Below are positions 3,162 through 9,774 of a stretch of DNA of 64,000 nucleotides, one piece after another. The DNA comes from Pseudomonas putida (GTDB lineage Bacteria > Pseudomonadota > Gammaproteobacteria > Pseudomonadales > Pseudomonadaceae), in assembly GCF_001636055.1 (NCBI RefSeq), contig NZ_CP011789.1:1116001-1180000 (forward strand), written 5' to 3'. Under the pieces are notes generated by a model. It was not told the DNA's origin and did no database searches. It saw only the letters and a program-made list of their open reading frames with translations. How positions within the stretch are numbered: position 1 is the first letter of the stretch; every line of letters begins with the position of its first letter. The position numbers were made by a program, and so were the translations under genes.

Positions 3162-3812
3162 TCAGGCGGGTTGTGCCTCAAGCTCCAGCATCGCTTCGCG
3201 ATAGCGCGCCAGCTCCTCGATGGTCACTACCGGCAGGTTGTACTGGCGCGCATACACGGCCACCTGCTCGCCCCGGGCCATGCTGCCGTCGGGGTTCATC
3301 AGCTCGCACAGCACCGCGGCTGGCCGCAACCCGGCCAGCCGCGCCAGGTCCACCGAGCCTTCGGTATGGCCGCGACGGGTCAGCACCCCGCCATCACGCG
3401 CACGCAATGGGAACACATGGCCAGGGCTGACGATGTGACGTTGCTCGGCGGTCGAGCGCAGTGCGGCCTCGATGGTGGTGATCCGGTCCTGGGCCGACAC
3501 GCCGGTGCTCACACCCTCGGCCGCCTCGATGGTGACGGTGAAGCCGGTGCCGTGGCGGGCCTGGTTGTTCTGCACCATGGGCGCGAGCTGCAACGCATCG
3601 ACCGTAGCTTCATCCAGGCACAGGCAGACGATGCCGCTGCAATCGCGAATCATCATGGCCATGGTCTGCAGCGACAGGTTTTCGGCAGCGGCAACGATAT
3701 CGGCTTCGTCCTCGCGATCGTCGTCGTCGAGCAGCAGCACGGGGCGCCCGGCCTGGAAGGCGGCGATGGCGGCGGTGACGTTGGGGAATTTCGAGTGGTG
3801 CAAGGTGGACAT
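3162..3812 (-). CDS. ribB: 3,4-dihydroxy-2-butanone 4-phosphate synthase
   Basis: This enzyme converts ribulose 5-phosphate to the four-carbon unit used for riboflavin. The 216-residue product has the acidic metal site [12 protein letters not shown] near residues 30-41, RHGTGFT in the middle, and [20 protein letters not shown] carrying catalytic His and Asp residues. The ATG at 3812 is preceded by GAGGAG at good spacing, so I prefer it to a start 15 codons upstream. It is the stand-alone form without a GTP cyclohydrolase II domain, as is typical of FMN-riboswitch-controlled ribB copies. The riboswitch lies immediately upstream. Confidence 0.96.
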
Positions 3813-3854
3813 GAAACGCTCCTCGTGAATGATCGATGAACGTCTCGGGGCGAA

Positions 3855-3897
3855 CAAAATGCGCGCGCAAGGGCGCCCGATGGCCCCGCGCTTGCGC
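3855..3897 (-). terminator. probable expression-platform hairpin of the ribB riboswitch
   Basis: Read on the minus strand, GCGCAAG and CTTGCGC bracket a GC-rich loop, followed by CGCGCATTTTG. It lies between aptamer and ribB, where a riboswitch-controlled terminator or start-sequestering stem would be expected. The T-run is short. Confidence 0.5.
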
Positions 3898-4030
3898 CTT
3901 CTTTCATCCGGACTATGACCGTCGGCTCTGGAGTCTCACCAGATCTGCTGACCCCCGGCATGGCCGGGGCGCTCGCGGGCTCATCTTTCGATTTACCGCC
4001 GGTGGGGACTTTCACCCCGCCCTGAAGACC
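3897..4030 (-). promoter_or_regulatory. FMN riboswitch (RFN element)
   Basis: On the minus strand the element opens with TCTTCAGGGCGGGGTGAAAG, continues with TCCCCACCGGCGGTAAAT, and closes with GACTCCAGAGCCGACGGTC and CCGGATGAAAGAAG. These are the conserved blocks of the RFN aptamer. It would repress ribB when FMN is plentiful. Confidence 0.95.
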
Positions 4031-4231
4031 GGGGGAGCATACCGCAAACCGACCGTTTGCTGGCAAGCCCTGCTTAAGTCGATGCCCGCCTTTCCCTTGA
4101 TCCCTTTAGCAGCGGCGGTTCGGCGTCCCGACTTGTCCCGCGGTCGGGCGCGCAGCGGCCGTAAAACCAGGCCCCGAGGTGTTTCAGGAAGCATTTGATT
4201 TCAGATTGGGAAACGTCCTACGGCCTAGCTG

Positions 4232-5821
4232 TCACCCCTGACCCTTCACCTGCTGCCAATCCAGCCCGAATCGCGCCAGGTACTTTCTCAGGCGATCGGC
4301 GTCGTTGGGGTTGGCCTTCTCCTGGCGCGACACCGCGAACAATTGGCGCCCGGCCTCGGACAGGCTTGCTGCGCGGCGACAAACGTCGATCACCGCCTGC
4401 AACTGCACCTGGTCGAACAGGTCCAGTTCGCGCCCGGCCAGTACCGGCTCGCTCTCGCCCTCCAGCCCCCAGGCATGACGCAAACGCTCGATCTCCTCTG
4501 CCACCAGGGCTTCGTCTATTCGCCCGCTGTCGGCCAGTGTCGCCATGCGCGTGATCGAGGCCGACAGCTCGCGAAAGTTTCCGGCCCAGCGGGCTTCGCT
4601 GGCGTGGGCGAACGCCAGGTAGCTGCGTTTGGCCTCCAGGTTGAAACGTACCTGCCGGCCTTGTTCGCGGGCATGGCGCTGCAACTCGAAGTCCAGGTTC
4701 GGCTCGATGTCTTCGCGCCGCTGCGCAAGCCCCGGCAGGGCGAAGGTCCACAGGTTGATACGGGCGAACAGGTCTTCGCGAAACGAGCCTTCGGCGACCT
4801 TGGCGCGCAGGTCGCGATGGGTGCCGGCGATCAGTTGGAAGTCGCTCTGCACTTCGCGGTCCGAGCCCAGCGGGAAGAAGCGCTTCTCTTCGATGGCCTT
4901 GAGCAGCATGGCCTGCTCGTCGGCGCCAAGCTCGCCGATCTCGTCGAGAAACAGCATGCCGCCGTCGGCAGCGCGCAGCAGGCCATCGCGGGCGTTCTGC
5001 GCACCGGTAAAGGCGCCCTTGGCATGGCCGAACAGGGCCGACATCGCGCCATCGCCTCGCAAGGTCGCGCAGTTGACCTCGATGAACCGCCCCTGCAACT
5101 GGTGCCGGCCGCGCTTGAGCTCGTGAATGCGCCGGGCCAGGAACGACTTGCCGGCGCCGGTAGGCCCGACCAGCAGGATCGGTGCCTTCGAGCGCAGGGC
5201 GACGCGCTCGATCTGTTCGATGGTGCGGTTGAATGCCGCGTTGCGCGTGGCAATGCCGGACTTGAGCAGCGACTGCGCCTCGACCTGCTCGTGGCGAAAG
5301 CGCGAAGCGATCAGGTCGTAGCGCGACAGGTCAAGGTCGATCAGCGTGGCAATACCGGCCGGGTCGCTGGCTTCGTCGTGCTTGCGTGAGGGCGAGGTCT
5401 GCACCAGGCGTGCGGGCAGGTAGCGCGCTTCGGTGAGCAGGAACCAGCAGATCTGCGCGACATGGGTGCCGGTGGTGATGTGCACGAGATAGTCCTCGCG
5501 CTCGGTGTCGAAGGGGTAGCCGCTGGAGAAGTCGTGCAGGGCGCCATAGACCTCTTCGAAATCCCATGGGTTACGCAGGCTGAGCGGGTGCAGTCGCACC
5601 TCGGTGTGGGGTGACACCTGCTGGACGTCGGCACGGATGCGTTCGGCCAGGCTGACGTCACGTACGCCGGGGCCGTGAATCAGCTCCAGGCGATCGAGCG
5701 GCAGGTCTGGCTGGCGGCACAGGCCGATCGTGGGGCGCCAGCGGTTCCAGCGTGCGGCGCCCTTGCCATTGCGGTCGAGGGTGGTGCCGAGAAAACCGAT
5801 GGCAACACGGGCTTTGCTCAT
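4232..5821 (-). CDS. rtcR: RtcR, sigma-54-dependent activator of the RNA-repair operon
   Basis: The 529-residue protein has an N-terminal RtcR/CARF-like sensor domain (about 1-180), a sigma-54 AAA+ domain with Walker A GPTGAGKS near 220 and the sigma-54 contact loop GAFTGA near 268, and a short C-terminal DNA-binding region. RtcR proteins respond to RNA-damage signals, and removal of the sensor domain is known to make the E. coli protein constitutive. It is divergent from the SPFH-rtcB-RlaP genes, whose start region carries a sigma-54 promoter and two palindromes suitable as activator sites. The sensor ligand cannot be deduced here. Confidence 0.95.
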   Translation of the reverse strand: MSKARVAIGFLGTTLDRNGKGAARWNRWRPTIGLCRQPDLPLDRLELIHGPGVRDVSLAERIRADVQQVSPHTEVRLHPLSLRNPWDFEEVYGALHDFSSGYPFDTEREDYLVHITTGTHVAQICWFLLTEARYLPARLVQTSPSRKHDEASDPAGIATLIDLDLSRYDLIASRFRHEQVEAQSLLKSGIATRNAAFNRTIEQIERVALRSKAPILLVGPTGAGKSFLARRIHELKRGRHQLQGRFIEVNCATLRGDGAMSALFGHAKGAFTGAQNARDGLLRAADGGMLFLDEIGELGADEQAMLLKAIEEKRFFPLGSDREVQSDFQLIAGTHRDLRAKVAEGSFREDLFARINLWTFALPGLAQRREDIEPNLDFELQRHAREQGRQVRFNLEAKRSYLAFAHASEARWAGNFRELSASITRMATLADSGRIDEALVAEEIERLRHAWGLEGESEPVLAGRELDLFDQVQLQAVIDVCRRAASLSEAGRQLFAVSRQEKANPNDADRLRKYLARFGLDWQQVKGQG

Positions 5822-5905
5822 GGAGTTATCCCAGAAGATAAAGTCTTATCCAACTATATATGAATGACCGGGTTTCCTGCGGCCACTAAAATTGCCAGCA
5901 AACCA

Positions 5906-5922
5906 GATTTAAAAAATAAATC
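5906..5922. promoter_or_regulatory. A/T-rich inverted repeat, candidate RtcR upstream site 1
   Basis: GATTTA-AAAAA-TAAATC is a perfect 6-bp-arm inverted repeat, centred about 82 bases before the predicted sigma-54 transcription start. It shares the ATTTA/TAAAT core with the second palindrome. Confidence 0.5.
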
Positions 5923-5932
5923 GTTAAAAATC

Positions 5933-5951
5933 AGTTATTTAATAAATAACT
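5933..5951. promoter_or_regulatory. perfect 19-bp palindrome, candidate RtcR upstream site 2
   Basis: AGTTATTTAATAAATAACT has two 9-bp arms around one A. Its centre is 28 bp from that of the other A/T palindrome and just upstream of the sigma-54 promoter, as expected for enhancer-binding-protein sites. It lies in the only strongly AT-rich stretch of this region. Confidence 0.6.
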
Positions 5952-5969
5952 CGAGCAGTCTCCAAAAGC

Positions 5970-5985
5970 TGGCATGCCGCTCGCA
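5970..5985 (+). promoter_or_regulatory. sigma-54 promoter of the RNA-repair operon
   Basis: TGGCATGCCGCTCGCA matches TGGCAC-N5-TTGCA with the invariant GG and GC separated by exactly 10 bases. It is oriented toward the SPFH gene and divergent from rtcR. Transcription would begin near 5996-5998, leaving an untranslated leader of about 415 bases. Confidence 0.75.
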
Positions 5986-5995
5986 ATATCCCTCT

Positions 5996-6400
5996 CGACC
6001 GAATCGCCAGGCAGGCCCAAGGGCAAGGGGTTGAGACCCCGCTGGTGCACGTACCCACTCAGGTGTCGGTGTCGTGCATGCCGCCGCTGCAACGACCGGT
6101 CGCCCTGTGCAGTACCCGTGAAACGGCTGCGCAGACGCTCGCCGGGAAGCCCCGGCACTACCCTCCTACGGTAGCTGTGAACGTAACACCCGCTGGTGCG
6201 GTGCAGGTCAGGCAAGCAGGGCCAGGATGGCCCCTCGACGGCCACGGACGTCTGCACCACCGCCGGCCCACCCGGCCTGCCGGCCGGACCTGGCGCAACG
6301 AAGGACGCCGCCTGAGCCTTGCTCACGGTGCCTGACTCCGCCAGGTCTCGCCCGCAGTGCCCGGTGTGCCGGCACCACCGGCAACCCTGGATATGGATGA
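5996..6400 (+). ncRNA. long, multi-hairpin untranslated leader RNA of the RtcR-controlled operon
   Basis: No convincing coding region occupies this stretch. Helices I can pair by eye: 6027-6030/6037-6040; 6045-6051/6073-6079 with inner 6053-6058/6063-6070; 6109-6112/6127-6130 with 6116-6119/6123-6126; 6141-6146/6151-6156; 6158-6162/6170-6174 with a 7-nt loop; 6187-6190/6195-6198; 6200-6206/6252-6258 enclosing 6219-6224/6228-6233; 6272-6277/6282-6287; 6288-6295/6339-6346 enclosing 6313-6317/6321-6325; 6367-6372/6378-6383. Several are perfect 6-8 bp stems. It could be a 5' UTR regulator, a processed small RNA, or a substrate of the repair enzymes. RtcR operons elsewhere can carry Y-like RNAs, but I see no clear Y-RNA or tRNA signature. 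Confidence 0.6.
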
Positions 6401-6413
6401 AAAGGATAGAAAG

Positions 6414-7544
6414 ATGAAATTGTTCAAACGCTTTGTCGTGAAGAAGAACGAACGTGGCCTGCTGCTCGATGAAGGCGACTTCGAGGCCATCCTCGAGCCT
6501 GGGCAGTATTCGCGTGTCGACTGGCGCGACCGGCTGACGGTGCAGACCTTCAGCCTCAATTCCCCGCTGTTCGACCATCCGCTGGCAGGCTACCTGCGTC
6601 AGCACCAGCCGCAGTTGGTCGAGCAGTATTTCGAGCGCATGGACCTGGGCGAACATGAGCTGGGCCTGCGTTTCGAGGACGGTCGGCTGGTCGAGCTGCT
6701 GGCACCGGACAGCCGTCGCCTGTACTGGAAGGGCCAGGCCCGGCAGACCCTGGAGCGAGTCGACCTGAGTGGCGGACGGCGCGTGGCGCCTGCATTGCTC
6801 GCACGCTTGAACCGTCCAGGCATGGCCGGCCTTGAGCATGTACTGCTGGTGAGCGTGCCGGCGTTCCATGTCGGTGTGCTGAAGATCGACGGCGCCGTGT
6901 TCGACTTGCTCGAAGCCGGGCAGTATGGCTTCTGGCGCTGCGGCAGCCAGGTGACGGTGGAAACCGTCGATACCCGTGTGCAGGCGCTGGAGGTCGGCGG
7001 CCAGGAAATCCTTACCCGCGACAAGGTGAACCTGCGTCTGAACCTGGTCGCCAACTGGCGCTACGCCGACGTGCTGATGGCCCATGCACGCTTCAGCAAA
7101 CCGGTGGAGCACCTGTACCGTGAACTGCAATTCGGTCTGCGCGCCGCAGTGGGGACTCGGACCCTGGATGAGTTGCTGGAAGACAAGCAGTTCATCGACG
7201 ACAGCATCAGCCGCCACCTGCAGACGCAACTGCCGGGCAGCGGTCTGGAAATCAGCAGCCTCGGGGTGCGCGACATCATCCTGCCGGGCGAGATGAAGAC
7301 CCTGCTGGCGCAAGTAGTGGAGGCGGAAAAGGCGGCGCAGGCCAACGTGATTCGTCGCCGTGAGGAAACCCAGGCGACGCGCTCGCTGCTCAACACCGCC
7401 AAGGTGATGGAAGGTAGCCCGACGGCCCTGCGCCTGAAGGAGCTGGAAACCCTGGAGCGGGTGGCCGAACGCATCGACCGGATCTCGGTATTCGGTGGTC
7501 TGGATCAGGTATTGAATGGCTTGGTTAGCCTCAAGGCAGGCTGA
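6414..7544 (+). CDS. SPFH/slipin-family protein of the RtcB operon
   Basis: The start MKLFKRFVVKKNERG follows AAGGATAGAAAG, a good ribosome site. The 376-residue protein has SPFH-type sequence and a C-terminal helical, charged region (about 290-360). There is no signal peptide or obvious membrane hairpin, unlike classical stomatins. Residues about 10-48 and 150-190 look like two copies of one module: compare GLLLDEGDFEAILEPGQY with GVLKIDGAVFDLLEAGQY. Slipin-like proteins are recurrent RtcB-operon partners, but their role in RNA repair is not settled. First gene after the structured leader. Confidence 0.85.
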   Translation: MKLFKRFVVKKNERGLLLDEGDFEAILEPGQYSRVDWRDRLTVQTFSLNSPLFDHPLAGYLRQHQPQLVEQYFERMDLGEHELGLRFEDGRLVELLAPDSRRLYWKGQARQTLERVDLSGGRRVAPALLARLNRPGMAGLEHVLLVSVPAFHVGVLKIDGAVFDLLEAGQYGFWRCGSQVTVETVDTRVQALEVGGQEILTRDKVNLRLNLVANWRYADVLMAHARFSKPVEHLYRELQFGLRAAVGTRTLDELLEDKQFIDDSISRHLQTQLPGSGLEISSLGVRDIILPGEMKTLLAQVVEAEKAAQANVIRRREETQATRSLLNTAKVMEGSPTALRLKELETLERVAERIDRISVFGGLDQVLNGLVSLKAG

Positions 7545-7565: not shown

Positions 7566-8771
7566 ATGAACCTGTTGGAAGTGGCCGGCGGCAAGCCGAT
7601 CAAACTGTGGACCGATGGCGTGCCGGTCGAGGACGACGCGCGTCGGCAACTGATGAACACCGCACGCATGCCGTTCATCTTCAAGCACCTTGCGGTGATG
7701 CCGGACGTGCACCTGGGCAAGGGTTCGACCATCGGCAGTGTGATCCCCACCGTGGGTGCGATCATCCCGGCAGCGGTTGGTGTCGACATCGGTTGCGGCA
7801 TGATCGCCGCACGCACCTCGCTGCACGCGCGCGACCTGCCGGACAACCTGCATGGCCTGCGCAGTGCCATCGAGAAGGCCGTGCCCCATGGCAAGACGTT
7901 CGGTCGTCGTGACCAGGGCGCTTGGGGCGAAGTGCCGAGCCAGGCCGACCAGACCTGGGGCCGCCTGGCCGGACGTTTCAAGGTGATCACCGACAAGCAT
8001 CCGCAGTTGGAGAAGACCAACAACCGCAGCCACCTCGGTACCCTGGGCGGCGGCAACCACTTCATCGAAGTCTGCCTGGACGAGGCCGACCGGGTCTGGT
8101 TCATGCTGCACAGCGGTTCGCGTGGGGTGGGCAATGCTATTGGCAACCTGTTCATCGGGCTGGCCCAGGCCGACATGCGTCAGCACCTGGCCAACCTGCC
8201 GGACAAGGACCTGGCCTATTTCGAGGAAGGTAGCCGGCATTTTGCCGACTATGTCGAGGCGGTGGAGTGGGCGCAGGACTTTGCCCGGCAAAATCGCGAA
8301 CTGATGATGCAGGCGGTGGTGGCAGCGACCCGCAAGGTGCTGGGCAGGCCTTTCGAGGCCAGCCTGGAGGCGGTCAATTGCCATCACAACTATGTGCAGC
8401 GTGAGCAACACTTCGGGCGCGAAGTGCTGGTGACCCGCAAGGGCGCGGTATCGGCGCAGAAGGGTGAGCTGGGCATCATTCCCGGCTCCATGGGCGCGAA
8501 GAGCTTCATCGTCCGTGGGTTGGGCAATGAAGAGGCTTTTTGCTCGTGCAGCCACGGTGCAGGGCGGGTGATGAGCCGGACCAAAGCCAAGAACCTGTTC
8601 ACCGTCGAGGACCAGCAGCGTGCCACGGCCCATGTGGAGTGCCGCAAGGACAAAAGTGTGATCGACGAGATTCCGATGGCCTACAAGGATATCGATGCGG
8701 TCATGCAGGCCCAGCGCGAGCTGGTCGAGGTTGTGCACACCCTGCGTCAGGTGGTGTGTGTGAAAGGTTGA
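7566..8771 (+). CDS. rtcB: RNA ligase RtcB
   Basis: RtcB joins RNA 2',3'-cyclic-phosphate or 3'-phosphate ends to 5'-OH ends with GTP and Mn2+. Visible motifs are MPDVHLGKG (about 46-54), GVDIGCGM with the metal-binding Cys (about 72-79), LGGGNHFIE (about 161-169), HSGSRGVG (about 182), GSMGAKSFIVRG (about 308) and HGAGRVMSR (about 330), whose His is the expected guanylylation site. At 401 residues it matches the short bacterial type. It lies 21 bases after the SPFH gene, with AACAAGGA as ribosome site. No rtcA cyclase gene follows. Confidence 0.97.
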   Translation: MNLLEVAGGKPIKLWTDGVPVEDDARRQLMNTARMPFIFKHLAVMPDVHLGKGSTIGSVIPTVGAIIPAAVGVDIGCGMIAARTSLHARDLPDNLHGLRSAIEKAVPHGKTFGRRDQGAWGEVPSQADQTWGRLAGRFKVITDKHPQLEKTNNRSHLGTLGGGNHFIEVCLDEADRVWFMLHSGSRGVGNAIGNLFIGLAQADMRQHLANLPDKDLAYFEEGSRHFADYVEAVEWAQDFARQNRELMMQAVVAATRKVLGRPFEASLEAVNCHHNYVQREQHFGREVLVTRKGAVSAQKGELGIIPGSMGAKSFIVRGLGNEEAFCSCSHGAGRVMSRTKAKNLFTVEDQQRATAHVECRKDKSVIDEIPMAYKDIDAVMQAQRELVEVVHTLRQVVCVKG

Positions 8772-9647: not shown

Positions 9648-9733
9648 TGTGGGAGCGGGCTTGCCCGCGAAAAGGACACCGCGCTGCCTGGCACGGGCTC
9701 CGCCCGTGTTCGCGGGCAAGCCCGCTCCCACAG
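9648..9733. repeat. pair of inverted Pseudomonas REP elements (BIME-like)
   Basis: CTGTGGGAGCGGGCTTGCCC followed by GCGAA occurs at the left end, and its reverse complement at the right end, with an inner GGCACGGGCTCCGCCCGTG hairpin. It sits between convergent genes and could serve both as terminator. Confidence 0.85.
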
Positions 9734-9774
9734 GGGTTGGGCGGATCTTTGGGTTTTGAGCAAGACAGTTGCTG

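What the first reader, a model, noticed from the sequence alone, without database searches (positions are those of the whole stretch)
5996..6400. Long structured leader RNA between an RtcR-type sigma-54 promoter and the SPFH-rtcB-RlaP genes
Seen: a sigma-54 promoter match at 5970-5985, then about 415 bases with no gene and at least ten stems of 4-8 bp packed end to end, several of them perfect (6288-6295/6339-6346; 6200-6206/6252-6258; 6219-6224/6228-6233; 6272-6277/6282-6287). Known: RtcR regulates RNA-repair genes in response to damaged RNA, and some such operons carry Y-like RNAs. Inference: this leader may be a new non-coding RNA, either the damage sensor, a cleavage target, or a repair scaffold. 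It could be the most novel item here.
Basis: partly seen in the sequence, partly recalled or inferred. Interest (0 to 1): 0.88.

Follow-up and report, generated by a model that had tools for sequence, protein, structure and literature searches.

The report
Structured leader RNA of RNA-repair operon
The gene-free stretch in front of an RNA-repair operon encodes a large, conserved folded RNA that in most examined relatives contains transfer-RNA look-alikes but in this Pseudomonas lineage has plain hairpins instead, which suggests that it works together with the ring-forming protein encoded right behind it.

Summary
Window 5996-6413, between a sigma-54 site and the SPFH gene, folds better than 100 of 100 shuffles (z -3.29) and has no conserved reading frame. 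Its 5' domain covaries across 72 Pseudomonas and mostly beta-proteobacterial leaders, its 3' domain across 27 Pseudomonas leaders. The RNA goes with SPFH: it is in 80 of 80 SPFH loci kept, 6 of 6 genome hits of its model lie beside SPFH, and it persists in loci without adjacent RtcR. In 96 of 97 leaders outside the window's group the middle has one to three T-arms of tRNA-like units. These look like mimics: 37 of 98 have a 7-nt anticodon loop with U33, 0 of 22 in Pseudomonas. The window's group (15 leaders) has hairpins there instead, consistent with one change on the SPFH tree (support 72/75). A tRNA-like RNA cognate to SPFH was, as I recall, predicted by Burroughs and Aravind in 2016 (not held). 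Best reading, inferred: RNA partner of the SPFH ring in RNA repair. New variant of a known kind.

The parts
5970..5985 (+). sigma-54 promoter element TGGCATGCCGCTCGCA
   Evidence: like element in 20 of 20 Pseudomonas loci
5996..6413 (+). leader RNA region (start inferred from the promoter; structured part ends near 6382, before the ribosome-binding site near 6400-6409)
   Evidence: fold z -3.29; covariation; no conserved frame; coordinates
5997..6101 (+). 5' domain, outer helix 5997-6001/6097-6101
   Evidence: A2 helix 1, 98.2% of cells paired but nearly invariant, so little covariation
6027..6040 (+). hairpin P1 (GGGG...CCCC)
   Evidence: paired in 67% of cells over 72 leaders: weak or misaligned
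6044..6082 (+). helix P2, GGUGCACG/CGUGCAUGCC with inner pairs: the best conserved part of the family
   Evidence: 96-98% paired, four pairs each with 20-37 two-sided changes except one-sided ones listed; model R1 64.3 bits
6105..6134 (+). hairpin A, in the place of tRNA-like unit 1 of relatives
6141..6156 (+). hairpin B, in the place of tRNA-like unit 2 of relatives
6158..6174 (+). hairpin C (CUACC-CUCCUAC-GGUAG), which by eye also follows unit 2 in tRNA-like leaders
6192..6382 (+). 3' domain: closing helix 6192-6198/6376-6382 and long helix 6262-6295/6339-6373
   Evidence: 21 of 36 pairs with two-sided changes over 27 leaders; coordinates
4232..5821 (-). rtcR
   Evidence: NF038308, 845.5 bits; PF06956
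6414..7544 (+). SPFH/Band-7 protein gene
   Evidence: PF01145; model and fold matches
7566..8771 (+). rtcB, RNA ligase
   Evidence: PF01139
8809..9618 (+). rlaP, nucleotidyltransferase of RNA repair
   Evidence: PF10127

Best explanation
The leader is a structured non-coding RNA of about 390 nt, transcribed from the RtcR/sigma-54 promoter when RNA damage is sensed, and it belongs with the SPFH protein encoded just behind it. It has a 5' domain, a variable middle and a 3' domain. In most examined relatives the middle holds tRNA mimics that mostly cannot decode; in the window's lineage it holds plain hairpins. Most likely the RNA is the structural partner of a ring or cage built by SPFH, bringing RtcB and RlaP together with broken RNA, with the mimics as an optional docking part. 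Shown here: conserved covarying structure, linkage to SPFH, the poor anticodons of the mimics, their absence in this lineage. Inferred: transcript ends, binding to SPFH, the scaffold role.
For: Fold z -3.29. Covariation of the 5' domain over 72 leaders: score 0.340 against 0.146 shuffled and at most 0.154 slid; of the 3' domain over 27: 109 two-sided cells against 32.6 shuffled and at most 15 slid. 5' domain in 80 of 80 kept SPFH loci (64 by pattern; 16 of 16 rest by model); 6 of 398 phylum genomes ring and 6 of 6 lie beside SPFH; one hit in the own genome, this leader. Present in 10 loci without adjacent RtcR. SPFH model resembles ring and cage formers.
Against: No binding, expression or processing data. 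Linkage to SPFH fits a cis-acting leader equally well. 22 of 27 phylum genomes with RtcR above cut-off gave no hit of the 5' domain model, so the model sees only part of the family or the RNA is not general. The 5' domain model barely sees the distant gamma leaders (2 of 21 class loci, E 0.029 and 0.2). In P. aeruginosa deletion of SPFH genes had little effect in the laboratory as far as the abstract and passages say (PMC13086221).
Confidence: 0.45

Rival explanations
1. Cis-acting leader: the RNA folds within the mRNA and tunes translation or stability of SPFH in answer to damaged tRNA or another ligand.
For: It always lies directly upstream of SPFH in the loci examined, as regulatory leaders do.
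Against: The conserved structure closes at 6382, before the ribosome-binding site near 6400-6409; no terminator-like site; two large domains plus tRNA mimics are more than such switches usually need (judgement).
Confidence: 0.25
2. Decoy or sentinel: the tRNA-like units are bait for anticodon nucleases, and cut halves feed RtcR.
For: Tandem tRNA-like units lie in an RtcR-driven transcript; [quoted passage not shown]
Against: The window has no such unit. 46 of 98 units have no 7-nt loop and 0 of 22 in Pseudomonas have U33 in one. The RNA occurs without adjacent RtcR.
Confidence: 0.12
3. Processing signal: tRNA-like units are cut by RNase P and Z to free the two domains from the mRNA, and hairpins took over this job in the window's lineage.
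For: Units sit between the two conserved domains.
Against: Unit 2 has by eye a short acceptor stem that runs straight into hairpin C; the replacing hairpins are short.
Confidence: 0.1
4. The leader encodes a peptide.
For: Open frames exist, up to 96 aa from GTG at 6045.
Against: The frame is kept at 0.20-0.52 of positions in 13 of 14 relatives and 0.77 in the closest; gaps are not in threes.
Confidence: 0.02

Closest known systems
tRNA-like RNA cognate to SPFH/Band-7 modules in RNA-repair operons (Burroughs and Aravind 2016, abstract recalled; paper not held)
   Same: Association with SPFH, RtcB and RlaP; tRNA-like units in relatives.
   Different: The window's RNA has no tRNA-like unit but hairpins; whether the 2016 work described the flanking domains I cannot say.
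YrlA-type bacterial Y RNA (RF02553)
   Same: RNA in an RtcR-controlled repair operon; tRNA mimicry (PMC7790460 and PMC8394870, passages).
   Different: No Rfam hit in the window; tandem units of relatives score 26.5-42.0 bits against a cut-off of 69; partner gene is SPFH.
Anabaena trn operon under TrcR (PMC10272220, passages)
   Same: One regulator governs a tRNA operon and rtcB under translational stress; a slipin (SPFH-type) gene is also raised in the mutant.
   Different: Repressor, separate loci, tRNA genes rather than embedded mimics; no RtcR.
Vault particle with vault RNA (major vault protein)
   Different: Stomatin and HflK/C match better; the N-terminal part alone has no match at E<=0.001; no evidence of a cage or of bound RNA.

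Membership tests
SPFH-cognate tRNA-like RNA (2016, recalled) | lies with SPFH in an RtcB operon | tested here: met
SPFH-cognate tRNA-like RNA (2016, recalled) | tRNA-like fold (T-arm) | tested here: not met
   window: ARAGORN 0, no T-arm; met in 96 of 97 leaders outside its group
SPFH-cognate tRNA-like RNA (2016, recalled) | agreement with the published alignment | not testable with these tools
   paper not held
the leader RNA family described here | 5' domain with helix GGUGC...GCAUGCC | tested here: met
   64.3 bits, E 5.3e-10 in the own genome; the window is one of the 72 training rows
the leader RNA family described here | 3' domain closed by GCYGGUG/CACCRGC and a long helix | tested here: met
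   window included; tested on Pseudomonas leaders only
YrlA Y RNA (RF02553) | reaches the Rfam cut-off of 69 bits | tested here: not met
YrlA Y RNA (RF02553) | gene for Rsr/Ro60 (TROVE) beside it | tested here: inconclusive
   none among the four genes scanned with Pfam; other genes of the window were not scanned
tRNA gene | cloverleaf with anticodon | tested here: not met
RtcR-controlled sigma-54 leader | sigma-54 element with divergent rtcR | tested here: met
   activation itself not testable here
vault ribonucleoprotein | tandem vault repeats before the shoulder domain | tested here: inconclusive

The most novel reading that the evidence does not exclude
The operon builds a bacterial vault-like ribonucleoprotein: a soluble SPFH cage made only when tRNAs are being cut, for example during phage attack, whose RNA part is this leader and whose cargo is the RtcB/RlaP repair enzymes. 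The tRNA mimics are exchangeable address labels, and the window's lineage shows that the RNA can leave tRNA mimicry behind altogether.
Probability: 0.15. Interest if true: 0.92.

Novelty: new variant of a known kind. Interest (0 to 1): 0.6.

Why it matters
RtcB repair operons are widespread, and in P. aeruginosa PAK one with rtcA and rtcB was the single operon reported to rise, nearly 80-fold, on infection by phage PAK_P3 (PMC4933390, passages); yet what SPFH and the leader do is open. A covarying RNA linked to SPFH, with mostly non-decoding tRNA mimics that one lineage lacks, makes the question testable: does SPFH bind this RNA, and is the mimic needed? The window's lineage is a natural experiment in which the mimic is already gone.

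Tried and rejected
Peptide in the leader: no frame conservation. Y RNA: below the Rfam cut-off. tRNA genes in the window: none. Plasmid or phage relatives of the leader DNA: no match in 72,556 plasmid and 50,697 phage records. Second copy in the genome: none at E<=1 with the 5' domain model. Terminator-like site in 5822-6500: none by pattern. The first alignment of 20 loci failed because loci from minus-strand contigs are not turned round. A promoter pattern was too strict and was loosened. RNAalifold left the middle of the window-type leaders unpaired, so hairpins A, B and C were read from single folds and tested by strand swaps over 10 of the 15 leaders, with strands that I picked by hand from those folds. 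A vault match for the N-terminal part of SPFH alone was not found at E<=0.001.

Against my reading: hairpin A is weak in G257 (own duplex -4.0), and swapped strands did as well as the own mean in 6 of 88 (A), 16 of 84 (B) and 0 of 58 (C) swaps. The number of pairs with two-sided change in the 5' domain was no higher than in shuffles (6 against 6.2). Window-type was defined by lacking T-arms, so 0 of 15 is by construction; one change on the tree has modest support (72/75; 68% of bootstrap trees). 22 of 27 phylum genomes with RtcR above cut-off gave no hit of the 5' domain model. 37 of 98 units do have a 7-nt loop with U33, and some units may be true tRNAs (L153 at -499, called tRNA-Lys). The 98 come from 112 distinct leaders, and only units that fit my D-arm and T-arm patterns are counted.

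Rows dropped: leave out six named loci (L076, L082, L084, L086, L087, L090) judged to be the same genomes as unnamed ones from contig lengths, and three class loci (L056, L074, L075), clipped or partial. A3 leaves out two class rows and repeats of identical stretches. A4 leaves out L158 and L159, fetched after the loci it was made from.

Literature: no held paper has both 'tRNA-like' and 'SPFH', none has two of 'novel tRNA-like', 'Band-7' and 'RtcB'; the 2016 review I recall is not held, so this is weak.

Full report
Observation. The stretch 5996-6413 lies between a sigma-54 element at 5970-5985 and the start of an SPFH/Band-7 gene. RtcR is divergent; SPFH, RtcB and RlaP follow in one direction. 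The RNA folds at -204.9 kcal/mol against -183.9 (sd 6.4) in shuffles, z -3.29, 0 of 100 as good. In it there is no Rfam match at gathering score, no tRNA gene and no terminator-like site. The frame of the longest ATG/GTG/TTG reading frame lying wholly inside, 6045-6335, is kept at 0.20-0.52 of positions in 13 of 14 relatives and at 0.77 in the closest.

Relatives. A DNA search gave matches in 32 of 398 Pseudomonas genomes, many of them short. A search with SPFH found the locus in 20 of 398 genomes of the genus and in 22 of 369 of the class, the own genome counted each time. A sigma-54 element lies upstream of SPFH in 20 of 20 Pseudomonas loci.

Two domains covary. The 5' domain (GGUGC ... GCAUGCCG) aligns over 72 distinct leaders from Pseudomonas and mostly beta-proteobacteria. 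Over 15 pairs, 109 cells change on both sides against 34.0 (sd 6.5) in shuffles; the covariation score is 0.340 against 0.146 (sd 0.009), 0 of 500 as high, and at most 0.154 when slid. The number of pairs with a two-sided change did not exceed the shuffles (6 against 6.2), and hairpin P1 pairs in only 67% of cells. The 3' domain over 27 Pseudomonas leaders of both types has 21 of 36 pairs with two-sided changes against 12.6 (sd 1.7), and 109 such cells against 32.6 and at most 15 when slid. In the 15 window-type leaders alone, 14 of 72 pairs have two-sided changes against 6.8 (sd 1.6). The structures are RNAalifold's own on these alignments, ten pairs dropped by me for (one search lists nine left-hand columns); that is RNAalifold's plus P1, added by me. 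This favours them in the slide control, and relatedness can inflate the shuffle control.

It goes with SPFH. Of the 80 kept loci, 64 show the 5' domain by a motif pattern. The model built from such rows finds it in 16 of the 16 others, 14 at E<=0.002 and two at 0.007 and 0.018. In 398 genomes of the phylum it rings in 6, and 6 of 6 lie beside SPFH. In the window's genome the only hit at E<=1 is this leader. RtcR above its cut-off is in 27 of these 398 genomes: 5 of the 27 have the RNA, and so has one genome without it (G989). Ten of the 80 loci have at least 2.9 kb held upstream and no RtcR match at 1e-10, yet carry the RNA: L105, L110, L113, L124, L127, L146, L148, L151, L153 and L154. In L061, L069 and L073 the leader lies between RtcB and SPFH.

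The middle. ARAGORN calls a tRNA in the 900 nt upstream of SPFH in 49 of 80 named loci, with many anticodons or none. A T-arm pattern finds one to three in 96 of 97 leaders outside the window's group: 12 of 12 other Pseudomonas, 67 of 67 from the named scan, 17 of 18 class-level gamma; the spacing has a median of 73 nt in the 77 leaders with two. Of 98 units with D-arm and T-arm in 81 leaders, 52 have a canonical 7-nt anticodon loop, 37 of them with U33, with 18 anticodons including UUA. The other 46 have other loops, led by UUCG (9), GAAA (6) and GCAA (5). In Pseudomonas 0 of 22 units have a 7-nt loop with U33. That U33 is nearly universal in tRNAs is recalled. Unit 1 often lacks a D-arm, and unit 2 has by eye a short acceptor stem that runs into hairpin C. 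Most are thus mimics that cannot decode, though a few may be true tRNAs.

The window's variant. The 15 window-type leaders have no T-arm and show three hairpins, A, B and C, in the same place, A being weak in G257. Stems differ between species and pair best with their own partner: mean own/cross duplex energy -14.4/-8.2 for A, -8.0/-4.3 for B and -3.6/-2.7 for C over 10 leaders. On an SPFH tree of 35 rows the two types need one change, support 72/75; the rows outside Pseudomonas are tRNA-like, so the hairpin type is most likely derived. P. aeruginosa PA7 keeps one T-arm and by eye has a hairpin in the place of unit 1, which looks like a halfway state.

Mechanism. In Salmonella the RtcR CARF domain binds 5' tRNA fragments with a cyclic phosphate (PMC7790460, passages). 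In E. coli such fragments bind the CARF domain but not full-length RtcR and did not suffice to activate it (PMC9650030, passages). In P. aeruginosa PAK the operon with rtcA and rtcB rises nearly 80-fold on PAK_P3 infection, though deleting rtcB changed neither growth nor plating (PMC4933390, passages). On induction the leader RNA comes first, then SPFH. I infer that the RNA is the structural partner of SPFH in a repair particle with RtcB and RlaP. A cis-acting leader is the main rival. A nuclease decoy is less likely, since the window has no mimic and the Pseudomonas mimics have no U33 loop.

Known or new. I recall from the abstract of Burroughs and Aravind (2016) that SPFH modules were paired with a novel tRNA-like molecule; the paper is not held, so I cannot say how much of this architecture it shows. 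A 2026 paper on SPFH proteins of P. aeruginosa places PaFlo8 in the rtc locus; I saw its passages only. No held paper has both 'tRNA-like' and 'SPFH'. What seems new is the covariation of both flanking domains, the count of loops that cannot decode, and a lineage with hairpins in place of the mimics.

Noticed in passing
window 3892-4033 (-): FMN riboswitch, 111 bits, in front of the minus-strand frame 3162-3857, which looks like a riboflavin-synthesis gene (label recalled, not searched).
   Followed up: no
window 9650-9735: Inverted repeat GTGGGAGCGGGCTTGCCCGCGAA ... TTCGCGGGCAAGCCCGCTCCCAC, like a Pseudomonas REP element (label recalled; seen by eye).
   Followed up: no
L057 496-967 and 2712-3873; also L153, L155, L161: Arrays of ordinary-looking tRNA genes around the SPFH gene: 13 ARAGORN calls in L057, further ones in L153 and L155 and L161. 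Replacement tRNAs under the same control would fit.
   Followed up: no
L047/L052, L048/L051, L049/L053, L050/L054 (G102, G329, G259, G189): SPFH matches in two overlapping pieces (query 1-199/202, then 66/70-376) within one open frame, so the N-terminal part seems repeated in these species.
   Followed up: no
L072 1093-1307: A gamma relative with RtcR beside it has three tandem tRNA-like units.
   Followed up: no
L137, L152, L160, L161 near the 3' end of the leader: A recurring GCTGTAACGGCACC motif shortly before the SPFH start in several Comamonadaceae and relatives, resembling hairpin C (by eye).
   Followed up: no
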